Below are positions 10,584 through 19,862 of a stretch of 64,000 bases of DNA, one piece after another; within the stretch, counting starts at the first letter, position 1; the number at the start of each line of letters is the position of its first letter. Both the position numbers and the translations under genes were made by a program. The notes under the pieces are model-generated. The model saw only the letters and a list, made by a program, of their open reading frames with translations, searched no databases and was not told the DNA's origin. The stretch covers positions 3,038,001-3,102,000 of the forward strand of contig CP036201.1 in the NCBI GenBank assembly GCA_004299845.1, given 5' to 3'. The stretch is from Verrucomicrobia bacterium S94. GTDB lineage: Bacteria; Verrucomicrobiota; Kiritimatiellia; Kiritimatiellales; Pontiellaceae.

Positions 10584-12080
10584 CTACAGCAGCGGAAGCC
10601 GCACCCGCGCCGAATATCCGTTCAGTTTGCGAGAGAGAGCATCCTTCAGCAGAGGTACACCGCCTTTACTGAATCGGGCGGAATAAACCTTCACCTCCTG
10701 CTGCATCACTGCAGCCTCCTCCACCTTCGCATCGACCAGCAGCATTTCGAGAGCGGAATACAGTTCCGGCCGGACATTTCCGGTGGCCGAAACAAAGCCT
10801 GCAGCCCCCTGCTGAACCGGTTCAAAAATATGGGTACTCGACCCCACAAAATACCGTGGTGTATGCTCCATAAGCTCAAAATTCCGCGCAGAATCCTTGA
10901 GTCCGTAGTGCGACACTTCACGAAGTATTTTCGGGGTAATTCCGTTCCCCGTATGTTTCGGGAAATTATAAAGCAGAAACGGAACATCCGCCTCAGCTTC
11001 CAAGGCCTGGAAATACTGAATGATACCGGCTTCCGGCAATCCCGATGGATAGATCGGCGGCAGAACCGCCACCGCATCCGCCCCGAAATCGTTCGCCCAG
11101 CGGATTTCGGTTTTATTCTGTTCCAGTCCGGTTCCGCCGGCATGCAGAATGATTATTCCCGGAAAATACCGCCGCGCCAGTTTCAGCAGCTGTTTCCGTT
11201 CCTCCGGCAGCAGCGAGAAAAATTCCGCCGTCGTTCCATTCACCATAATCCGGTGCACCCCATGCTGCGCCAGAAATTCCAGATGCCGGATAAACGCGTG
11301 CTCATCTATTTTCCAATCTTCGGAAAACGGCGTCAGCACCGGAACAATCAACCCCTGCAGCCCCACCTCGGTGTAGCCGGACTCGAAAAGATCGTTGTAT
11401 TTCCGAAAGAGCCCGGCCGAAACCGACTCAATTTCCAGATGATAATCCTCATCGCAATAAAGATGCAGATCCGCCCACTTTTTACTTTCCGCACCATATT
11501 CAGAAAACTCGCGCAGATTACTCTGCAGAAACGTGGCAATCGCTTTCTCCCGATCATACCCCCGCCTTTCAATATCGCGGTCAATCCGCGTGGCCAGCTG
11601 CGTCTTCCAATCGGAATCAATAAAGATCGAAAAATCAACCTGCTCGCGAAATACAGGATAGGTTGAAACCTCACCATCCAGCAGATTAAACTTTCCCGGA
11701 ACAAAGGCCTCAGTCTGCCCGGCTTCTCCTGTAGACGAATCATATACCGGTTTCTGAAACGTCCGACCGGCTTTAATTTCAGCAAAATGCTCCTGCATCA
11801 GCTCCAGCTTATTCGCTTCCGGGTGCGGACCGTAGATCTCCTTCTCTGCCCGGAATGCTCTTGAGGTTTTATAGTCATCCAGCCGCAGTGTCACCGCATT
11901 CGGCAGACACGCCTTCAGTGCCCGGGCAAAGGTCGATTTCCCCGTACCGCCGGGACCTCCGATGGCCACCAGAACGGAGCCGGCCTCTGCAAACTCCTGT
12001 TTCAGCAGTTCCGCAACAACCTGTTCCGGAGCACGGTGTTTTCCGTTTTTTACAGCAATGTGGGTTTTGAATTTATGCAT
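10584..12080 (-). CDS. Fusion of a uridine-kinase-like P-loop kinase and a DapA-family aldolase
   Basis: About 498 residues. The first 225 form a P-loop kinase: Walker A GGPGGTGKSTFA near residue 31, LRLDDYKTS and IDRDIERRGYDRE, as in uridine kinase/phosphoribulokinase relatives. From about 245 onward it is a dihydrodipicolinate synthase/N-acetylneuraminate lyase barrel: GTTAE loop (NGTTAEFFSL), the Tyr in FLLYNFPKHTG and the Schiff-base Lys in YGLKDSARN are all present, so both halves look active. The aldolase class cleaves or joins pyruvate with an aldehyde; the kinase could phosphorylate the sugar partner. The substrate is unknown. ATG at 12080 is preferred to GTG at 12122, which lies inside paired dyads and lacks a ribosome site. 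Confidence 0.82.
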   Translation of the reverse strand: MHKFKTHIAVKNGKHRAPEQVVAELLKQEFAEAGSVLVAIGGPGGTGKSTFARALKACLPNAVTLRLDDYKTSRAFRAEKEIYGPHPEANKLELMQEHFAEIKAGRTFQKPVYDSSTGEAGQTEAFVPGKFNLLDGEVSTYPVFREQVDFSIFIDSDWKTQLATRIDRDIERRGYDREKAIATFLQSNLREFSEYGAESKKWADLHLYCDEDYHLEIESVSAGLFRKYNDLFESGYTEVGLQGLIVPVLTPFSEDWKIDEHAFIRHLEFLAQHGVHRIMVNGTTAEFFSLLPEERKQLLKLARRYFPGIIILHAGGTGLEQNKTEIRWANDFGADAVAVLPPIYPSGLPEAGIIQYFQALEAEADVPFLLYNFPKHTGNGITPKILREVSHYGLKDSARNFELMEHTPRYFVGSSTHIFEPVQQGAAGFVSATGNVRPELYSALEMLLVDAKVEEAAVMQQEVKVYSARFSKGGVPLLKDALSRKLNGYSARVRLPLL

Positions 12081-12096
12081 GGCGAGGGAATGTACC

Positions 12097-12139
12097 GGTT
12101 TTTCAATGATTGGAAAACCCACTTTCCAAGCTTTGGAAA
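12097..12139. promoter_or_regulatory. Two tandem TTCCAA/TTGGAA dyads between divergent genes
   Basis: GGTTTTTCAAT and ATTGGAAAACC face each other around a single G (12097-12119, 10 of 11 bases paired). TTTCCAA and TTGGAAA follow around GCT (12123-12139). Centres are 23 bases apart. They lie between the kinase-aldolase fusion (leftward) and the 94-residue gene (rightward), and a related dyad stands before rsgA at 35522-35540. They may be operator sites or a dispersed palindromic repeat. Confidence 0.45.
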
Positions 12140-12654: not shown

Positions 12655-15600
12655 ATGGGAAAGTTTATGAAGAAAAGGGAATGGAAGCTGTCGGGTGTTC
12701 TGGCGGCGTTTTGTTTTCTGAGCATGCCGGAATCCATGTTCGCTCAGGAGTTCCGGATCAGCGAATACGATGGAGATTCGATTACGGTTGAATATCCTCC
12801 GTGTTTTGACGGGGCCTACCTTTTTGTCGAGCAGGGGACCAATCTTGTCGATCAGAACTGGGAAACCGTGGATTATACGCAGGTCAGCCTGGCGGAGGAG
12901 GATGCGGTATCCTTTGCCGTGTCTTCGACCGGCCGGACAGCAGCTGCCACGGGAGCGATTTCAGCCGCCGAATTGCCGGAGACCGGCGGAGAGCATGAAA
13001 GCGGATTTGTCCGGATCAGTGCCGTTTCTTTCGTGGATTCCGACGGGGACGGTCTCGACAATGTCACGGAATATGCACTGAACCTGAACCCGTATGAAAA
13101 GGATGCCCCGCAGGTTTCACTGCCCGAAGATGACGGCGATCCCCGGCCGGTGCCGGGATCTGTCGACAGTGCTCCGGGCGACTGGAATACGCCGCCGTCT
13201 GCAGTGTACCGGAATGCAGGATCTGCCTATGAGCTGATCAATCATCTGATTCTGGCGCTGGAAGGAACCAACGGAACGTTCACGGCTCAGACATCTGCTG
13301 CAGCGCTGGGCGGCTGGATCGAACAGCAGTGCGGGAGCTGGTATCCGCCGCTGGAGAATGATCGGTTTCCGATTGTGTACGGCGGCCGTTTTTTCAGGAT
13401 GGAGACCAATGGATTTGAATGGGTCGGAAAGGAGCATATTTATCCGTTGGCTTTTTATGATTATGCGGCATCCGGCTATGCGGATGCCGTGCCTCAGTTT
13501 ATCAATCATCTGGTCCGTTCGTCCGAAACAGACCGGCCGGGACTGGCGCTACTGCCGGACGGTTCCTCCGTTCTGGTCAATGCGGAAAATCCGTGGACTC
13601 CGGAAAAGGTGAATGCCTGTCTGCAGCAGTTCAGAACGGTGGTCTGCCGGCTGCAGTCGGTAGATGAAAATGGCGGTTTTGCGGCATCAGACAGCAACGC
13701 CATGGCCAGAGCAACGTGGAATTACTGGGGCACCTATAATGCCGCAACGGAATATTATCATCAGCCGCAGCAGCTGATCCGCTCTGAGTGGAAATATAAT
13801 GCTGAACAGGGGGAGTGGGAGCAGGTCCCGAATGAAGACGGCGCCATTGTCACCATTTTCGCTCAGAATCAGCAGTTTGAATTTACGGGAAATCTGCGCC
13901 GGTATGGCTTCGGCAGAACGGTCCACCGCGGTTATATGAAACTGATGGATGAGGTGGAATGGCAGATTGGATATCCCGATGAAACCAGTGCATATAAACG
14001 CAGGTATGACCATCTCCCGGAAGGATTCCGGACCAACGGAATTTTCCGGACATTCACCGCCTCGGATCATGAAACCGCCTGGCTGGCCGCCGCGGCAACA
14101 AACTACAGCGCCGAAGCGTTCTGGGACTGGACGGCGCCGGATCTGACGGGCGGTACAGCGTGGACCGACCGGACGCTGGTTTATGACCGGGGCGGTTATA
14201 TTGCGGACGGCTATGTGTATTCCGGATACTATCCCTCCTATGTCTCTCCCGATGACTATACCGTTCTTTCAACCCTGTCGCCCCCGGTCTTTACCGAACA
14301 GTCGCTCATTATGGATATGGACCGCAACGGCGCCATTGATGCCGACGACTTCTATCGTGTGGACGCATCCCATCCCTACCGCTTCTGGATGAATGAAGAC
14401 GGTAACGATGCGGCCTATCCTGAAGCCGATATGGAGGATTTCTTTCCTGCCATGTTCAAAGGAACCGGTTCAGCCCAGACCTTTAAACTGTCAGCGAATA
14501 TCGACATGGATTATATTCAAACCACCATGTTAACCAACAACACCCAGGCGTATTTACATGATATTGATCTGGCGCAGTCGCTGGCCGGTCAGATCCGGTC
14601 CCTGGATGCCGGCGATCAGAGCCCGGCTGTTTTTTCAGAAAACGAGATCGTTCTGCTGGCGGCATCTGAAGTAAACACTAATGCACAGATCTATGTCCAC
14701 ACGCTTGAAAACGGGGTGGAGATCTCAATTTCCACCAACTATTTCTCCTTCAGCTCCGTCACCAACATGTACCGCATCAAAAACCTGCGGGCCGGCGGTG
14801 TCAGCTTCCTCGATCCACCTTCCAACTGGCCCGACGAACTCACCAACGACAGGGACTTCGTTTTTGTGCATGGGTATAACGTGACGGAATCAGCCGGACA
14901 CGAATGGAACAAAACCATCTTCAAACGCCTCTGGCACTCCGGCTCCAACGCCAGATACCATGCTCTGCTCTGGGATGGATCGCCGCCCGCAAGCGGAGAT
15001 AAAAAGCATTATCATAATGCGGTGGTTAATGCTTTTGCCACAGCACCGGATTTTGCCGATTATCTTAATTCATTGAATGATCCTGTAGTTGCCGCACATA
15101 GTTTGGGAAATATGGTGACCAGTTCAGCAATCTGTGACCACGGTGCAAATGTTTATCAATACTACATGCTTAATGCCGCTGTTGCCAAAGAGGCTTACGG
15201 GGATTCTGCCCCAAACGAAAACATGATTCCGGATGGAAGCCTCATATATAACCAGAACGAAGGGATTTTTTCGGTGCTTGGTTATAGCTGGCACAAATAT
15301 CCATTCGAAACCTACGCTTCCGAATGGTATCGATTGTTTGATACGTCCGACGCCCGGTCAGAACTGACGTGGCGGCACCGCTTTGCTGATATTCAAACAA
15401 AGACCGACGCCTTTAACTTTTACTCCTCAACCGAAGATATTCTGCGGGTGGACACGGGATATACCACCATTGTCAGCGGTCTGCTTCATGGCGATCTCGG
15501 CCTATATGCCTTTCAGCTACAGGAACTTTTCAAGGGGAAGGATGACCCCATCGCAAACGCCGGTGGCGGCTCTGATCCCTATACCGGCTGGGGATTTACG

Positions 15601-16152
15601 ACGAATAGTGATACACACATTTTCAGTATGGGCATTCCGCGCACAGATATTGGTCTAAACCTCTGGCCCAGATGGCCGCACTATCATCATGAACAACTCG
15701 AGACTAATGCCGCAAACACCGCTGTTCGTAATGCTTTCCGCGAAACACTTAAAACAGACCCACTCTTTCGTCCAAATCCTCCCGTTTTGTTTGAACCGGG
15801 AGCTGAAGCCTTTGCAGGCTCGACCATCGGCCTATGCGGATATACGTTTAACTACGACCTTCCAAGCGCCACTATAGATATTGCGGATGTCCCCGTTCGC
15901 GACTACCTGCTCGCAAAATCCTTCCCCGCCCGCACCGGGGCCTTGGGTTCGAGGGCAATAAGCGAGCAGGTTTCTACTGAATGGCAAAAAGCTACTTTTG
16001 ACATGTTTAATTTATATAGAACAGATGAAGATGCATGGCCTAGTCGAGAAGGTATAAATAATATAAGGGTGTGGAAACATAGCGATTTTCGGAATGTTCC
16101 TTATGTGCATGTGTACCAACTGTATGAAAAAATAACGGGGAAGGAGAACTAG
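12655..16152 (+). CDS. Large secreted protein with calcium-binding loops and a lipase-like alpha/beta-hydrolase domain
   Basis: 1165 residues. Signal peptide ends about SMPESMFA. A TSP3-like loop follows (DSDGDGLDN, about 127-135), then a long unassigned region, then an EF-hand/dockerin-type loop at 554-565 (DMDRNGAIDADD). The C-terminal third is an alpha/beta hydrolase: FVFVHGYN is the oxyanion strand and AHSLGNM places the likely nucleophile Ser at about 816 (AHSLG in place of GHSLG). Acid and His partners are not assigned. After the core comes a 120-residue tail with LKTDPLFRPNPP and YVHVYQLYEKITGKE. A lipoprotein gene starts one base after its stop. Start is either ATG 12655, 7 bases from TATATT and possibly leaderless, or ATG 12667 with GGGA 6 bases upstream. 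Substrate unknown. Confidence 0.75.
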   Translation: MGKFMKKREWKLSGVLAAFCFLSMPESMFAQEFRISEYDGDSITVEYPPCFDGAYLFVEQGTNLVDQNWETVDYTQVSLAEEDAVSFAVSSTGRTAAATGAISAAELPETGGEHESGFVRISAVSFVDSDGDGLDNVTEYALNLNPYEKDAPQVSLPEDDGDPRPVPGSVDSAPGDWNTPPSAVYRNAGSAYELINHLILALEGTNGTFTAQTSAAALGGWIEQQCGSWYPPLENDRFPIVYGGRFFRMETNGFEWVGKEHIYPLAFYDYAASGYADAVPQFINHLVRSSETDRPGLALLPDGSSVLVNAENPWTPEKVNACLQQFRTVVCRLQSVDENGGFAASDSNAMARATWNYWGTYNAATEYYHQPQQLIRSEWKYNAEQGEWEQVPNEDGAIVTIFAQNQQFEFTGNLRRYGFGRTVHRGYMKLMDEVEWQIGYPDETSAYKRRYDHLPEGFRTNGIFRTFTASDHETAWLAAAATNYSAEAFWDWTAPDLTGGTAWTDRTLVYDRGGYIADGYVYSGYYPSYVSPDDYTVLSTLSPPVFTEQSLIMDMDRNGAIDADDFYRVDASHPYRFWMNEDGNDAAYPEADMEDFFPAMFKGTGSAQTFKLSANIDMDYIQTTMLTNNTQAYLHDIDLAQSLAGQIRSLDAGDQSPAVFSENEIVLLAASEVNTNAQIYVHTLENGVEISISTNYFSFSSVTNMYRIKNLRAGGVSFLDPPSNWPDELTNDRDFVFVHGYNVTESAGHEWNKTIFKRLWHSGSNARYHALLWDGSPPASGDKKHYHNAVVNAFATAPDFADYLNSLNDPVVAAHSLGNMVTSSAICDHGANVYQYYMLNAAVAKEAYGDSAPNENMIPDGSLIYNQNEGIFSVLGYSWHKYPFETYASEWYRLFDTSDARSELTWRHRFADIQTKTDAFNFYSSTEDILRVDTGYTTIVSGLLHGDLGLYAFQLQELFKGKDDPIANAGGGSDPYTGWGFTTNSDTHIFSMGIPRTDIGLNLWPRWPHYHHEQLETNAANTAVRNAFRETLKTDPLFRPNPPVLFEPGAEAFAGSTIGLCGYTFNYDLPSATIDIADVPVRDYLLAKSFPARTGALGSRAISEQVSTEWQKATFDMFNLYRTDEDAWPSREGINNIRVWKHSDFRNVPYVHVYQLYEKITGKEN

Positions 16153-16153
16153 G

Positions 16154-17089
16154 ATGAAGTTGTTCGTTAGTTTATTAATATTAGTAATGAGTTCCGGTTG
16201 TGCCATCGGCAAACCTGCGAACGTAAAATGTACGGTTAAAGTTTTGGATGCAGAAACCGGTCTACCGATCACTAATGCAGTTGTTCAGAATTATTTCACG
16301 GAAAAATACGATCCATGGGGAAATGAGAAAAATATTGTTAAAGAGCAGAAAATTCCCGTTGATGAAAATGGACAAGCTATTTTTGAAGGGAAAGACCTTT
16401 ATGGCGGAGCTGGAGGTACCGCTTATGCTGAAGGATATTATACTGGCAGTGCGGGAATAAAATCCCGGAGAAAAAACATTATCCTCAACCGCTGGGAGCC
16501 GTGGAACCCGACGATTGAGGTGAAGATGCGGAAAATAAAAAATCCAGTGTCGATGGTGCATAAGCAAATAGAGTGGAAGCTTAAGACCCCCAAATATAAC
16601 ACACCGATTGGGTTTGATTTGGAACAGGGCGACTGGATTCAGCCTTATGGGACTGGCATTATTAGCGACATGCTGATTGAAATCATTCCCCTGAATCCGG
16701 CGGAAAAAGGATCACAATGCCGCATCACCTTTCCGAATGAACGGGACGGAATTCAGGAACATAAATTCCAATGGCCGTCATCAGAATTCAAGTGGCCGTA
16801 TCTGGCTCCGACAAACGGATACAGCAATATGCTGGAAAGGAATTATGTTCTCAATCTCCCGAAAGTTGCGGGCGCGCCGAAACATACGCTTAAAAAAGAG
16901 GTGAACTATATTATTCGAACGCGAACGAAGGTTGATGATGAGGGCCAAATTATTTCAGCCTGTTACGGATGTTTTGAGGGTGAAATCATGTTTCTACCCA
17001 AAGGAGAATTCAAATTTTCCTATCATTTCAATCCGGTTCCGAACGAGCGGTCGCTGGAATGGAACGGTTTGAATCTGCTGAAAAATTGA
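16154..17089 (+). CDS. Putative lipoprotein paired with the lipase-like protein (first copy)
   Basis: 311 residues. A short signal peptide ends in MSSGC, a lipobox-like site, so the protein is likely anchored to a membrane through Cys16. The mature part opens with a carboxypeptidase-regulatory or Ig-like domain (VKVLDAETGLPITNAVVQN) and continues with an unassigned domain containing LNRWEPWNPT, FPNERDGIQE and FNPVPNERSLEWNG. It is a clear paralogue of the gene at 18463-19395: those motifs occur in the same order. It starts one base after the lipase-like gene, so the pair is translated together. Partner, inhibitor or chaperone of the hydrolase are all possible; none is shown. Confidence 0.72.
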   Translation: MKLFVSLLILVMSSGCAIGKPANVKCTVKVLDAETGLPITNAVVQNYFTEKYDPWGNEKNIVKEQKIPVDENGQAIFEGKDLYGGAGGTAYAEGYYTGSAGIKSRRKNIILNRWEPWNPTIEVKMRKIKNPVSMVHKQIEWKLKTPKYNTPIGFDLEQGDWIQPYGTGIISDMLIEIIPLNPAEKGSQCRITFPNERDGIQEHKFQWPSSEFKWPYLAPTNGYSNMLERNYVLNLPKVAGAPKHTLKKEVNYIIRTRTKVDDEGQIISACYGCFEGEIMFLPKGEFKFSYHFNPVPNERSLEWNGLNLLKN

Positions 17090-17099
17090 TCTTTGACAA

Positions 17100-18461
17100 T
17101 TGAAAACCGACCCGCGCTTCCGCCCCGAACCCGAAGAGCTGTTCAGCGGGAAGGCCGCCGCTTTTGCCGCTGGAACCATCGGTACGCACGGCGGAAATCT
17201 CGAATATCACGGCATAATCCGGGACGGTATTGGAGAAGGTTCCTTACTGACGCATTACCAGAATTCAGTGGTGAACGCTTTCGCGACTGCTCCGAGGGTT
17301 GCTGACTATATTCAATCCCTCTCATCCACGGAAACCATTGTATTGGCGCATAGCCTGGGCAATATGGTGGTCAGTTCTGCTATCTGCGAATACAATGCCC
17401 CGGTCCGGCAGTATTATGCCTTAAATGCCGCTGTGGCACTCGAAGCCTACGGAGATGTAACGAGCAATGAAGCCTTAATTCCGGATGTCTTTTTTTGCTG
17501 GGAACGGGAAGGGTTTCTGGATTATGAACGGCGGGGCTGGCGGGACTATCCGCATGAAACCTGGGCTTCGGAATGGTATCGTCTGTTTCCGGAAAACGAT
17601 CCGCGGGCAGAGCTGACCTGGCGGCACAAGTTTGCGGATATTCAGAAAAAAACAGCTGTATTCAACTTTTATTCCAGCACCGAGGATGTGCTTCGTGTGC
17701 TCGACGATGTAAATTCCATTATCAAATTGATCGACTGGAGTTCCGTCCGTCCCGAATTACGGTTTCATGTTTTTCCCCTGACTTTTACCTCTGACAAAAA
17801 ATGTGCATGGCAGTTACAGGAAATGTACAAAGGATTAAATGACTGGGTAGCAACGTATTTCGGAGGAGGATCAAGTAAGCAGGCGGGATGGGGATTTACG
17901 AAGGAGGATGGAATGCATGTAAAAACTGTACGGAAAAAAACACCGGGCAGCCATCCCCCAAGCTACAGCTACAGAAAGTACACGGAAACTCCTGCCGCAG
18001 CCACCAATGCACTGAGTACTTTGCCGGGTAATGAAACCCGGCGGGCAGACTATCTTGAAAAACTGAAAACCGATCCGCTCTTCCGGAAAGAACCGGCGAT
18101 CCTCTTCGATGAAAACCATGCGGCGGATTTTGTGTCCGGTACCGTCAGTGACTATGCCGGCCATCTTGATTATACCAATGATGACACCGAACTTGATATT
18201 TCTAATGTTATTGTCAGGGATTGGCTTCTCGCAAAAGCATTCCCATCAAGGACCGGGCCGATGGGAAGTGCAGAGAATAAAGAGTGGGATGCATTAATCG
18301 GAAATTACGACATGTCAGCGTTGTACATGACCGATCCGGGGAAATGGTTTCATGATAAAACCTATCAAGAAAGGCCGACCTGGAGGCATAGTGATTTCAG
18401 AGACGCACCATATGTTCATGTTTATAAGTTGTATAAAAAAATCACTGGCAAGGAGGATTAA
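17100..18461 (+). CDS. Truncated mosaic copy of the lipase-like protein
   Basis: 453 residues, no signal peptide, starting on a TTG without a ribosome site and with an in-frame TGA six bases upstream. Residues 1-45 (KTDPRFRPEPEELF, AAGTIG) match the tail of the 1165-residue protein (KTDPLFRPNPPVLF, AGSTIG). Directly after that comes the hydrolase core (QNSVVNAFATAP against HNAVVNAFATAP) with AHSLGNM, Ser at about 85, followed by a second full tail (LKTDPLFRKEPAILF, YVHVYKLYKKITGKE). The order tail-core-tail shows that one copy's tail was joined to another copy's core with loss of everything between. Without signal peptide and the HGY strand it is probably non-functional, though the frame is still open. 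Confidence 0.6.
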   Translation: MKTDPRFRPEPEELFSGKAAAFAAGTIGTHGGNLEYHGIIRDGIGEGSLLTHYQNSVVNAFATAPRVADYIQSLSSTETIVLAHSLGNMVVSSAICEYNAPVRQYYALNAAVALEAYGDVTSNEALIPDVFFCWEREGFLDYERRGWRDYPHETWASEWYRLFPENDPRAELTWRHKFADIQKKTAVFNFYSSTEDVLRVLDDVNSIIKLIDWSSVRPELRFHVFPLTFTSDKKCAWQLQEMYKGLNDWVATYFGGGSSKQAGWGFTKEDGMHVKTVRKKTPGSHPPSYSYRKYTETPAAATNALSTLPGNETRRADYLEKLKTDPLFRKEPAILFDENHAADFVSGTVSDYAGHLDYTNDDTELDISNVIVRDWLLAKAFPSRTGPMGSAENKEWDALIGNYDMSALYMTDPGKWFHDKTYQERPTWRHSDFRDAPYVHVYKLYKKITGKED

Positions 18462-18462
18462 G

Positions 18463-19395
18463 ATGAAATGGTTTCTTCTGCTCATATGTATGCTCAATTC
18501 GAGTTGCACGTTGGCTTCATTACCAAAAGCGAAATATACAGTGCATGCAACCGATGCCGAAACTGGTTTGCCCATTACGAATGCTCTGGTTCGCACAGGG
18601 TTTGAACATCAATACGACCCGTGGGGCAACAGGCCCAATATAGTAGATCGGAGAAAAGAAGCTTTGGATGAAAATGGTTTTGTTACGTTCTCTGGAAAAA
18701 CATTGGGGAACGAATGGGGAGGTAATGTGCATGCCGAGGGTTATTACAGCCACGGGTTCGGCATGAAATACAAACATAACGTTGTTCTCAACCGCTGGGA
18801 GCCCTGGAACCCGACTTTTGAAGTGAAGATGCGCCCGAAGAAGAATCCGGTGCCGATGTATCATAGAGAAGGTCATTGGAGTGCATTTAAAGTGCCCGAG
18901 TACGAAAAGCTTTTAGGGTATGATTTGGAAAAGCAGGATTTTGTTTCTCCCCATGGAAAAGGCTCAAAAGCAGATCTGTTTTTTGAATTTAAACGGGATT
19001 TCAAAAACTCTCAGAATTACGATGTTTCATGCAGGCTGACATTCCCTAATGAGCATGACGGCATTCAGGAATATTATTTTGATGAAACAATACGAAGCAG
19101 TTTCAAGTGGCCATATCTTGCTCCGACCAATAGTTACCGACCGACTGTCGAATGGCATTCAACTCGAAGTAATGCCGGGGCTATAAGCAATAATTTCAAA
19201 GAAAACGTGAATTATATTTTTCGGGTTCGAACACAGGTTGATGATGAAGGAAATATTACATCCGCCTGCTATGGGAAAATATCCGGTCCCTTCGGACTCG
19301 GATGGGCCGATTGGGCAAACTGGGTGTATTGGTTTAATCCTGTTCCGAACGAGCGGTCGCTGGAATACAACGGTGTAAATCTGCTGAAGAAATGA
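18463..19395 (+). CDS. Putative lipoprotein, second copy
   Basis: 310 residues. Signal peptide ending in LNSSC gives a lipobox-like Cys15. Same plan as the 16154 gene: ATDAETGLPITNALVR, LNRWEPWNPT, FPNEHDGIQEYYF, FNPVPNERSLEYNG. AAGGAGG before ATG at 18463 makes this start far better than the upstream frame opening at 18352, which overlaps the preceding gene. Its stop overlaps an ATG (ATGA), and a small barrel-like gene follows. The gene is intact although its lipase-like partner is truncated. Confidence 0.72.
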   Translation: MKWFLLLICMLNSSCTLASLPKAKYTVHATDAETGLPITNALVRTGFEHQYDPWGNRPNIVDRRKEALDENGFVTFSGKTLGNEWGGNVHAEGYYSHGFGMKYKHNVVLNRWEPWNPTFEVKMRPKKNPVPMYHREGHWSAFKVPEYEKLLGYDLEKQDFVSPHGKGSKADLFFEFKRDFKNSQNYDVSCRLTFPNEHDGIQEYYFDETIRSSFKWPYLAPTNSYRPTVEWHSTRSNAGAISNNFKENVNYIFRVRTQVDDEGNITSACYGKISGPFGLGWADWANWVYWFNPVPNERSLEYNGVNLLKK

Positions 19396-19406
19396 AGGGA
19401 TATTAC

Positions 19407-19862
19407 ATGAAGATCAAACTCCTTATGACGTTGATGATGTTTGCATTGGCCGGCGTTTCTACAGCTGGCGTTCCCGGGATACCGATTTTGAATATCAAGG
19501 CAGGATATCCGCAGAAACTGTCTGGAGAAGTAGGGTGGATTTTAGGACCTTCTCGTGACGGAGGCAGTTGGAACACCGAGTCGATGGGAGCATACGTATC
19601 CATAAGTCCGGGGATTGCGGGAACCAAACTTTCTGTCGGATATGCTGCACTTGACGTTAATATGATAGGTTGGGCAGGAGCTCGCTTATCGGCAAGCTAT
19701 CTGTACATCTATGATGATGTAGGCAAGTATGATGCGGAATCCCAATATCTGGGGCCTGAATATAATTTGAGCATTTTGTTGTTTACGGCCAATCTCGGAG
19801 TCTTATGGCCTGTAAATGGCGGTGATCCAAGGATCATTGCCGGAATTGGGGTCGGGTGGTAA
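19407..19862 (+). CDS. Small secreted beta-barrel-like protein
   Basis: 151 residues. Signal peptide about 1-20 (LMMFALAGVSTAG). The mature chain is rich in Gly and aromatic residues in alternating strands (LSGEVGWILGPS, GAYVSISPG, LSVGYAALDV, RLSASYLYIY), compatible with a small outer-membrane barrel; it ends IIAGIGVGW. ATG at 19407 has GAAGGGA six bases before it and is preferred to the ATG at 19392 that overlaps the previous stop. It closes the lipase/lipoprotein group on this strand. Function unknown. Confidence 0.6.
   Translation: MKIKLLMTLMMFALAGVSTAGVPGIPILNIKAGYPQKLSGEVGWILGPSRDGGSWNTESMGAYVSISPGIAGTKLSVGYAALDVNMIGWAGARLSASYLYIYDDVGKYDAESQYLGPEYNLSILLFTANLGVLWPVNGGDPRIIAGIGVGW

What the first reader, a model, noticed from the sequence alone, without database searches (positions are those of the whole stretch)
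12655..19395. Tandem pairs of a lipase-like secreted protein and a lipoprotein
A large hydrolase (AHSLG) is followed by a lipoprotein one base later; then a truncated hydrolase copy is followed by a second intact lipoprotein. The alternating effector-like/lipoprotein order with duplicated lipoproteins is like toxic lipase and immunity-lipoprotein sets, or an enzyme with its foldase. The intact second lipoprotein beside a dead hydrolase would make sense for an orphan immunity or inhibitor gene. The families are not recognised, so this may be an undescribed pair.
Basis: inference. Interest (0 to 1): 0.65.

Follow-up and report, generated by a model that had tools for sequence, protein, structure and literature searches.

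The report
Lipase toxin-immunity pairs with swapped tails
A marine Verrucomicrobiota bacterium carries three near-identical genes for a large exported lipase-like protein, each with a different tail and a matching secreted partner gene plus leftover tail-partner copies behind it, which is how bacteria usually store interchangeable weapons and their antidotes; this pair is not in the family databases searched.

Summary
The window carries a 1165-aa exported alpha/beta-hydrolase, a lipoprotein one base downstream, a 5'-truncated hydrolase tail and a second intact lipoprotein. The same genome has two more such loci and one divergent pair. The three full hydrolase genes are mostly 96-100% identical in DNA up to about codon 740, then fall to about 50-70% through the hydrolase domain and the lipoprotein. 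Six truncated tail+lipoprotein cassettes lie behind them, and pieces of these are shared almost identically between loci. In an independent set (80 loci, several phyla), 72 of 72 full hydrolase domains with room downstream have the partner within 500 nt; 22 of 80 loci carry extra tails or partners. N-terminal parts are modular. The hydrolase models as a lipase-like alpha/beta fold with conserved Ser, acid and His; the partner as a transthyretin-like domain plus a second beta domain. No Pfam immunity family matches it. Best reading: a polymorphic toxin-immunity system with an exported lipase-like toxin and a secreted immunity protein. Toxicity, neutralisation and binding were not testable here. 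A foldase reading explains the linkage but not the orphan arrays.

The parts
12655..16152 (+). Full-length exported hydrolase (copy A1, 1165 aa): signal peptide, constant N-terminal region, variable C-terminal alpha/beta-hydrolase domain
   Evidence: ORF; Pfam Abhydrolase_6 E 5e-5 for the whole protein, 26.8 bits, above the 26.3 cut-off, for the domain alone
12761..14860 (+). Constant part: 96-100% DNA identity with the two other full-length copies in nearly all 150-nt bins (copy C 89% in the last bin)
   Evidence: sliding identity
14861..16152 (+). Variable part: hydrolase domain; DNA identity to the other full copies drops to about 42-72% (copy C still 93% in the first bin)
14869..14874 (+). 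HG of the HGYN oxyanion-hole motif (domain residues 44-45)
   Evidence: G45 invariant, H44 at least 90% in 76 sequences
15100..15102 (+). Predicted catalytic Ser in AHSLGN (domain residue 121)
   Evidence: invariant; role inferred from alpha/beta-hydrolase fold
15433..15438 (+). Predicted catalytic acid: conserved acidic pair E232/D233 after strand 223-228
   Evidence: alignment, strand in model; inference
16078..16080 (+). Predicted catalytic His in WKHSD (domain residue 447), inside the hypervariable tip
   Evidence: invariant
15947..16152 (+). Hypervariable tip of the hydrolase (last 40-70 codons), downstream of the shared-core breakpoints
   Evidence: breakpoints at -124 to -208 nt from the hydrolase stop in the cassette comparisons; position transferred to A1
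16154..17089 (+). Partner lipoprotein 1 (311 aa): signal peptide, lipobox SSGC (Cys at 16199-16201); proposed immunity protein
16217..16537 (+). Partner N-domain (residues 22-128), transthyretin/carboxypeptidase-regulatory-like fold; fastest-evolving part
16550..17059 (+). Partner C-domain (residues 133-302), second beta domain, best match 8b6a Z 9.8
17097..17210 (+). Scar: about 38 codons homologous to a hydrolase tail (domain positions 312-349), fossil of an earlier displacement
17100..18461 (+). Orphan hydrolase C-terminal half (copy A2): no signal peptide, no HGYN strand, keeps AHSLGN and WRHSD
   Evidence: core 98.5-99.7% identical to orphans B2 and C4 at other loci
18463..19395 (+). Partner lipoprotein 2 (intact, lipobox NSSC), proposed orphan immunity gene
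   Evidence: C-half 94-95% identical to partners B2 and C3
19392..19862 (+). Small protein with a hydrophobic N-terminus (156 aa), overlapping the end of lipoprotein 2; also ends the array at locus B (94%)
   Evidence: role in the system unknown

Best explanation
This is a polymorphic toxin-immunity system. The big protein is exported by Sec (signal peptide seen) and then out of the cell, perhaps by a type II-like route (inferred). Its constant N-terminal 740 residues serve delivery or presentation, and its C-terminal lipase-like alpha/beta-hydrolase domain attacks a neighbouring bacterium's envelope lipids (inferred from fold and triad). The gene directly behind encodes a secreted, here lipid-anchored, immunity protein that sits in the periplasm and blocks the cognate tail (inferred). 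New tail+immunity cassettes replaced older ones, pushing displaced tails with intact immunity genes downstream; the second lipoprotein in the window is such a displaced immunity gene. Shown: constant/variable split, strict linkage, cassette arrays, cassette exchange between loci, modular N-termini, folds. Inferred: export beyond Sec, toxicity, neutralisation.
For: Three full copies mostly 96-100% identical in DNA up to about codon 740, then about 50-70%. Six truncated tail+partner cassettes behind them: in all six the hydrolase is truncated and in five the partner ORF is intact. Near-identical blocks shared between loci: B1/C2 hydrolase core 99.8% over 1189 nt, A2/B2/C4 core 98.5-99.7%, C2/C4 partner C-half 99.3%, A2/B2/C3 partner C-half 94-96%. 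Partner within 500 nt downstream of 72 of 72 full hydrolase domains and 10 of 11 C-terminal fragments; extra tails or partners at 22 of 80 loci. Patchy spread over many phyla and 7 of 28 same-genus genomes or fewer on the hydrolase profile (one search lists 6 including the own genome; one search lists 7 with a match of any part). Different N-terminal modules: beta helix, TSP3, transglutaminase, CARDB, Ig-like. Lipase-like fold: Bacillus subtilis lipase A Z 12.9 over 155 residues, conserved Ser and His. The partner N-domain is the most variable part (24% mean identity) and tracks the hydrolase beyond permutations. Matching published organisation: toxin-immunity cassettes (PMC3482391), orphan CdiA-CT/CdiI arrays (PMC3150448), effector displacement leaving immunity arrays (PMC5361080), lipase immunity proteins carrying lipoprotein or Sec signals (PMC13133936).
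Against: No toxicity, binding or delivery data. Locus C's full hydrolase has a partner frameshifted near a run of six Gs: a sequencing error, a slippage site or a real loss, and a real loss would be awkward for a lethal toxin. The toxin fold stays the same across the cassettes and loci compared, whereas classic polymorphic toxins swap unrelated folds. The export route is not identified; no TssF was found (control rang) and the two-partner transporter search was uninformative. A hydrophobic N-terminal stretch was found in only 34 of 52 complete hydrolase ORFs by a crude test.
Confidence: 0.76

Rival explanations
1. Enzyme with its dedicated foldase or secretion chaperone: the lipoprotein helps the exported lipase fold or cross the periplasm, as lipase-specific foldases do. 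The pair would be nutritional.
For: Strict downstream linkage; partner secreted and sometimes anchored; lipase-like fold; polysaccharide-degrading lifestyle of the genus is known (PMC7356697, abstract).
Against: Does not explain partner genes kept in arrays without an intact hydrolase, partner genes in 31 genomes without a detected hydrolase, hydrolase tails carried as orphan cassettes, or three copies with constant N-terminus and diverging tail.
Confidence: 0.1
2. Antigenic or receptor variation of a surface protein: silent cassettes are copied into an expressed gene to change an exposed tail, as in variable surface antigen systems, with no killing.
For: Silent cassettes and shared blocks between loci; constant N-terminus.
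Against: The varying part keeps an invariant Ser and His and other invariant core residues and the variation always includes a second, separately secreted gene; orphan partner arrays keep the partner and lose the hydrolase.
Confidence: 0.07
3. A host- or prey-directed secreted lipase (effector-like) whose lipoprotein only protects the producer's own envelope; not used between kin.
For: Sec-exported lipase-like domain and envelope partner.
Against: Fast diversification, cassette exchange and spare partner genes fit conflict between relatives better.
Confidence: 0.07

Closest known systems
Polymorphic toxin systems with alpha/beta-hydrolase toxins (Tox-ABhydrolase-1/2/3, Zhang et al. 2012, PMC3482391)
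   Same: C-terminal alpha/beta hydrolase on modular N-termini, toxin-then-immunity order, spare cassettes; Verrucomicrobia listed for ABhydrolase-1 and -2.
   Different: No match to the DUF2235 model of Tox-ABhydrolase-1 nor to any Pfam immunity family; the partner is a secreted two-domain beta protein; that table lists no immunity family for ABhydrolase-1, Imm-SUKH for -2 and Imm66/Imm69 for -3.
CDI orphan modules (CdiA-CT/CdiI arrays, PMC3150448)
   Same: Full-length gene followed by 5'-truncated tails, each with an intact immunity gene; exchange between full and orphan copies.
   Different: CdiB-type transporter not found (search uninformative); tails share one fold instead of unrelated toxins; a VENN-type junction was not looked for.
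Type VI lipase effectors and their immunity proteins (Tle/Tli; Tle1-Tli1a PMC13133936, Tle3-Tli3 structure 8boz)
   Same: Lipase-like alpha/beta hydrolase plus partner with lipoprotein or Sec signal, acting in the periplasm; duplicated immunity genes. Tle3 is among the fold matches (Z 10.8).
   Different: Own signal peptide and long N-terminal region; no TssF in the genome; no DUF2235 or DUF3304 match.
Vibrio cholerae T6SS immunity arrays (PMC5361080)
   Same: Displaced immunity genes, remnants of effector 3' ends, mosaic recombination.
   Different: Not T6SS; here breakpoints also fall inside the hydrolase tail and inside the partner gene.

Membership tests
Polymorphic toxin-immunity systems | Constant 5' part with abrupt switch to a variable 3' part between copies | tested here: met
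   mostly 96-100% to about 50-70% DNA identity near codon 740
Polymorphic toxin-immunity systems | Immunity-candidate gene directly downstream of the toxin tail | tested here: met
   72 of 72 full domains with room downstream; one base apart in the window
Polymorphic toxin-immunity systems | Stand-alone or orphan tail+immunity cassettes | tested here: met
Polymorphic toxin-immunity systems | Same toxin domain on different N-terminal modules | tested here: met
Classical polymorphic toxins (CDI/Rhs style) | C-terminal domains of unrelated folds swapped on one N-terminus | tested here: not met
   all tails compared in own genome and relatives are the same alpha/beta hydrolase; so it is called a variant, not a classical member
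Polymorphic toxin-immunity systems | Tail is toxic and partner neutralises it | not testable with these tools
   needs experiment
T6SS lipase effectors (Tle/Tli) | T6SS present in the genome | tested here: not met
   TssF absent, control (E. coli) rang
T6SS lipase effectors (Tle/Tli) | Membership of the Tle1 sequence family (DUF2235) | tested here: not met
   no DUF2235 match; other Tle families were looked at by fold only
CDI (CdiBAI) | CdiB/TpsB outer-membrane transporter | tested here: inconclusive
   no match, but no control genome rang
Known Pfam immunity families | Partner matches a Pfam immunity family | tested here: not met
   80 members scanned; only Ig/CarboxypepD_reg-like and other non-immunity hits
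Lipase-foldase pairs | Partner is needed for folding or secretion of the active enzyme | not testable with these tools
   needs experiment
Alpha/beta-hydrolase fold | Fold with nucleophile elbow and Ser/acid/His | tested here: met
   model pLDDT 87, pTM 0.91; lipase A Z 12.9; invariant S121 and H447

The most novel reading that the evidence does not exclude
A widespread, undescribed class of exported lipase-like polymorphic toxins in which specificity is exchanged by recombination inside genes: the last 40-70 codons of the hydrolase and the N-terminal domain of the immunity protein form one hypervariable block, while hydrolase core and immunity C-domain are reused almost unchanged in different combinations.
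Probability: 0.4. Interest if true: 0.75.

Novelty: new variant of a known kind. Interest (0 to 1): 0.64.

Why it matters
Almost nothing is recorded about contact or kin competition in Kiritimatiellota: the one paper found for the phylum name with 'toxin' and 'immunity' is a gut survey. If right, this gives a widely distributed toxin-immunity family there and in several other phyla, with an immunity fold not listed as such, and natural mosaics that point to where toxin and immunity protein recognise each other. It would also give a role to many unexplained 'alpha/beta hydrolase' and 'hypothetical lipoprotein' neighbours.

Tried and rejected
PADLOC: no match. NCBIfam: nothing above cut-off. Plasmids: no match to the hydrolase domain. 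Whole-model Foldseek matches of the partner are only local (TM-score for query 0.09-0.27); VIA-align splits it into two domains. The best C-domain match, 8b6a 'BfrB', could not be given a function from the library (one search returned unrelated ferritin papers). 'Breakpoints avoid the gene boundary' was considered as evidence of co-selected tip and partner N-domain: about 10 breakpoints, none between -124 and +172 nt, but with uniform placement this happens about 1 time in 4 (hand estimate), so it is not used as proof. Partial correlation of hydrolase tip with partner N-domain (0.21) is no larger than that of hydrolase core with it (0.25), so the tip alone is not singled out among distant pairs. 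dN/dS between orphan partners is low where measurable (0.10-0.49) but the divergence may predate orphaning. Promoter and terminator scans were at chance level. A fused prediction of the two proteins was not attempted because it would need a changed sequence.

Full report
WHAT IS THERE. The window is bases 3038001-3102000 of a closed 4.1-Mb genome. A relative in the same genus is recorded as 'Pontiella sp.' (G003 is the 3423-base contig listed), so the host is very probably a Pontiella-group Kiritimatiellota; this is an inference. The stop of the 1165-aa hydrolase and the ATG of the 311-aa lipoprotein are one base apart. The second hydrolase reading frame lacks signal peptide, the long N-terminal region and the HGYN strand, and starts with a short scar of another hydrolase tail. 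The second lipoprotein (18463-19395) is intact.

THE SAME GENOME. DNA and protein searches found two further loci of the same make (C1:1041436-1051092 and C1:3854915-3866790) and one divergent pair (1853-aa ORF plus 302-aa partner at 3457485-3463952). I call them B, C and D, and the window A. The three full-length genes are mostly 96-100% identical in DNA, bin by bin, up to about window position 14860. Then identity drops to about 50-70% and stays there to the end of the partner gene. That is the constant-head/variable-tail pattern of polymorphic toxins. Behind each full pair come truncated tails with their own partner: one in A, one plus fragments in B, four in C. Of these six, none has an intact full hydrolase and five have an intact partner frame.

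MOSAIC. Comparing the nine cassettes: hydrolase core shared at 99.8% between full copy B1 and orphan C2 over 1189 nt, and at 98.5-99.7% between orphans A2, B2 and C4. Partner C-half shared at 99.3% between C2 and C4, at 94-96% between A2, B2 and C3, and at 93% between A1 and C5. In between, the last 40-70 codons of the hydrolase plus roughly the first 100 codons of the partner differ in nearly all pairs, except C4/C5, which share it (95% over 323 nt spanning the gene boundary). So cassettes move between loci, and breakpoints also fall inside both genes. The B1/C2 match is the clearest sign that a full gene and an orphan have exchanged tails.

RELATIVES. In a sample of 288 genomes of the class, 88 have the hydrolase and 112 the partner, 81 both (Fisher odds ratio 63; relatedness not corrected). 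In 80 loci fetched from genome contigs, recorded as Kiritimatiellota, other Verrucomicrobiota, Lentisphaerae, Desulfobacterota and Nitrospirae, with single MAG contigs from other phyla (MAG binning may misplace some), 72 of 72 full hydrolase domains with at least 600 nt downstream have the partner within 500 nt, and so do 10 of 11 C-terminal fragments; 22 loci carry additional tails or partners, or a split gene. The N-terminal regions differ: beta helix, TSP3, transglutaminase core, CARDB, Ig-like domains.

FOLDS. The hydrolase domain (model pLDDT 87, pTM 0.91) is an alpha/beta hydrolase closest to small bacterial lipases (B. subtilis lipase A, Z 12.9, 2.5 A over 155 residues; Tle3 in 8boz at Z 10.8). 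Sequence profiles give weak pancreatic-lipase-like hits and Abhydrolase_6 or DUF900. Ser121 and His447 are invariant in 76 sequences; an acidic pair follows the strand at 223-228. The partner (pLDDT 93) has a transthyretin/carboxypeptidase-regulatory-like N-domain and a second beta domain matching 8b6a (Z 9.8). No Pfam immunity family matches any of 80 members. A crude motif count finds a lipobox in 12 of 85 partners, and a hydrophobic signal without one in 67. The published Tli proteins also come with either a lipoprotein or a Sec signal (PMC13133936).

HOW IT PROBABLY WORKS. Shown: signal peptide, constant head, variable tail, adjacent secreted partner, spare cassettes, exchange. Inferred: the head carries the lipase-like tail out of the cell and to a neighbour; the tail damages envelope lipids; the partner blocks the cognate tail in the periplasm; new cassettes displace old ones, and old partner genes are retained as protection against relatives still using the old tail, as proposed for CDI arrays (PMC3150448) and V. 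cholerae effectors (PMC5361080). The export route beyond Sec is open: TssF is absent with a positive control, five secretin genes exist, and the two-partner transporter search was uninformative.

WHAT SPEAKS AGAINST. No experiment. The partner of full copy C1 is frameshifted near a run of six Gs. All tails compared share one fold. The partner N-domain is the most variable part and tracks the hydrolase more than the C-domain does, but not the tip more than the core, so the idea that tip and N-domain form the recognition module is a hypothesis drawn mainly from the own-genome mosaics.

COMPARISON. It works like CDI/Rhs-type polymorphic toxins and like Tle/Tli pairs, but it is neither Tle/T6SS (no TssF, no DUF2235) nor shown to be CDI. 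Zhang et al. 2012 (PMC3482391) list three alpha/beta-hydrolase toxin groups, two of them present in Verrucomicrobia; their alignments were not available here, so whether this domain belongs to one of them is open. The two-domain secreted partner is not among the immunity families in Pfam. I therefore call it a new variant of a known kind.

Noticed in passing
window 10584-12122 (-): 512-aa protein fusing a uridine kinase/phosphoribulokinase-like domain (PF00485) to a dihydrodipicolinate synthase-family domain (PF00701), both above cut-off.
   Followed up: partly
window 19392-19862 (+); C1:1048228-1048695: 156-aa protein with a hydrophobic N-terminus overlapping the end of lipoprotein 2; a 94% identical copy ends the main array at locus B, none was found elsewhere in the genome. 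No Pfam, NCBIfam or PADLOC match.
   Followed up: partly
L010:8322-9370 (C1:3858321-3859369): Partner gene behind the full hydrolase of locus C is frameshifted near GGGCGGGGGG; could be slippage, phase variation or sequencing error.
   Followed up: partly
L028:4486-10953 (C1:3457485-3463952): Divergent fourth pair: 1853-aa ORF with a weak nidogen-like match (PF06119, below cut-off) and a 302-aa partner, without orphan cassettes found next to it.
   Followed up: partly
L103, L137, L142, L159; G250:C43; G100:C1:276892-287254: Long arrays: L103 alternates hydrolase (full or tail) and partner four times; the others are runs of three or more partner genes with few or no hydrolases.
   Followed up: no
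L104, L134, L143: Long hydrolases in Deltaproteobacteria/Geobacteraceae MAG contigs carry an N-terminal transglutaminase-like domain; relatives there may be easier to culture.
   Followed up: no
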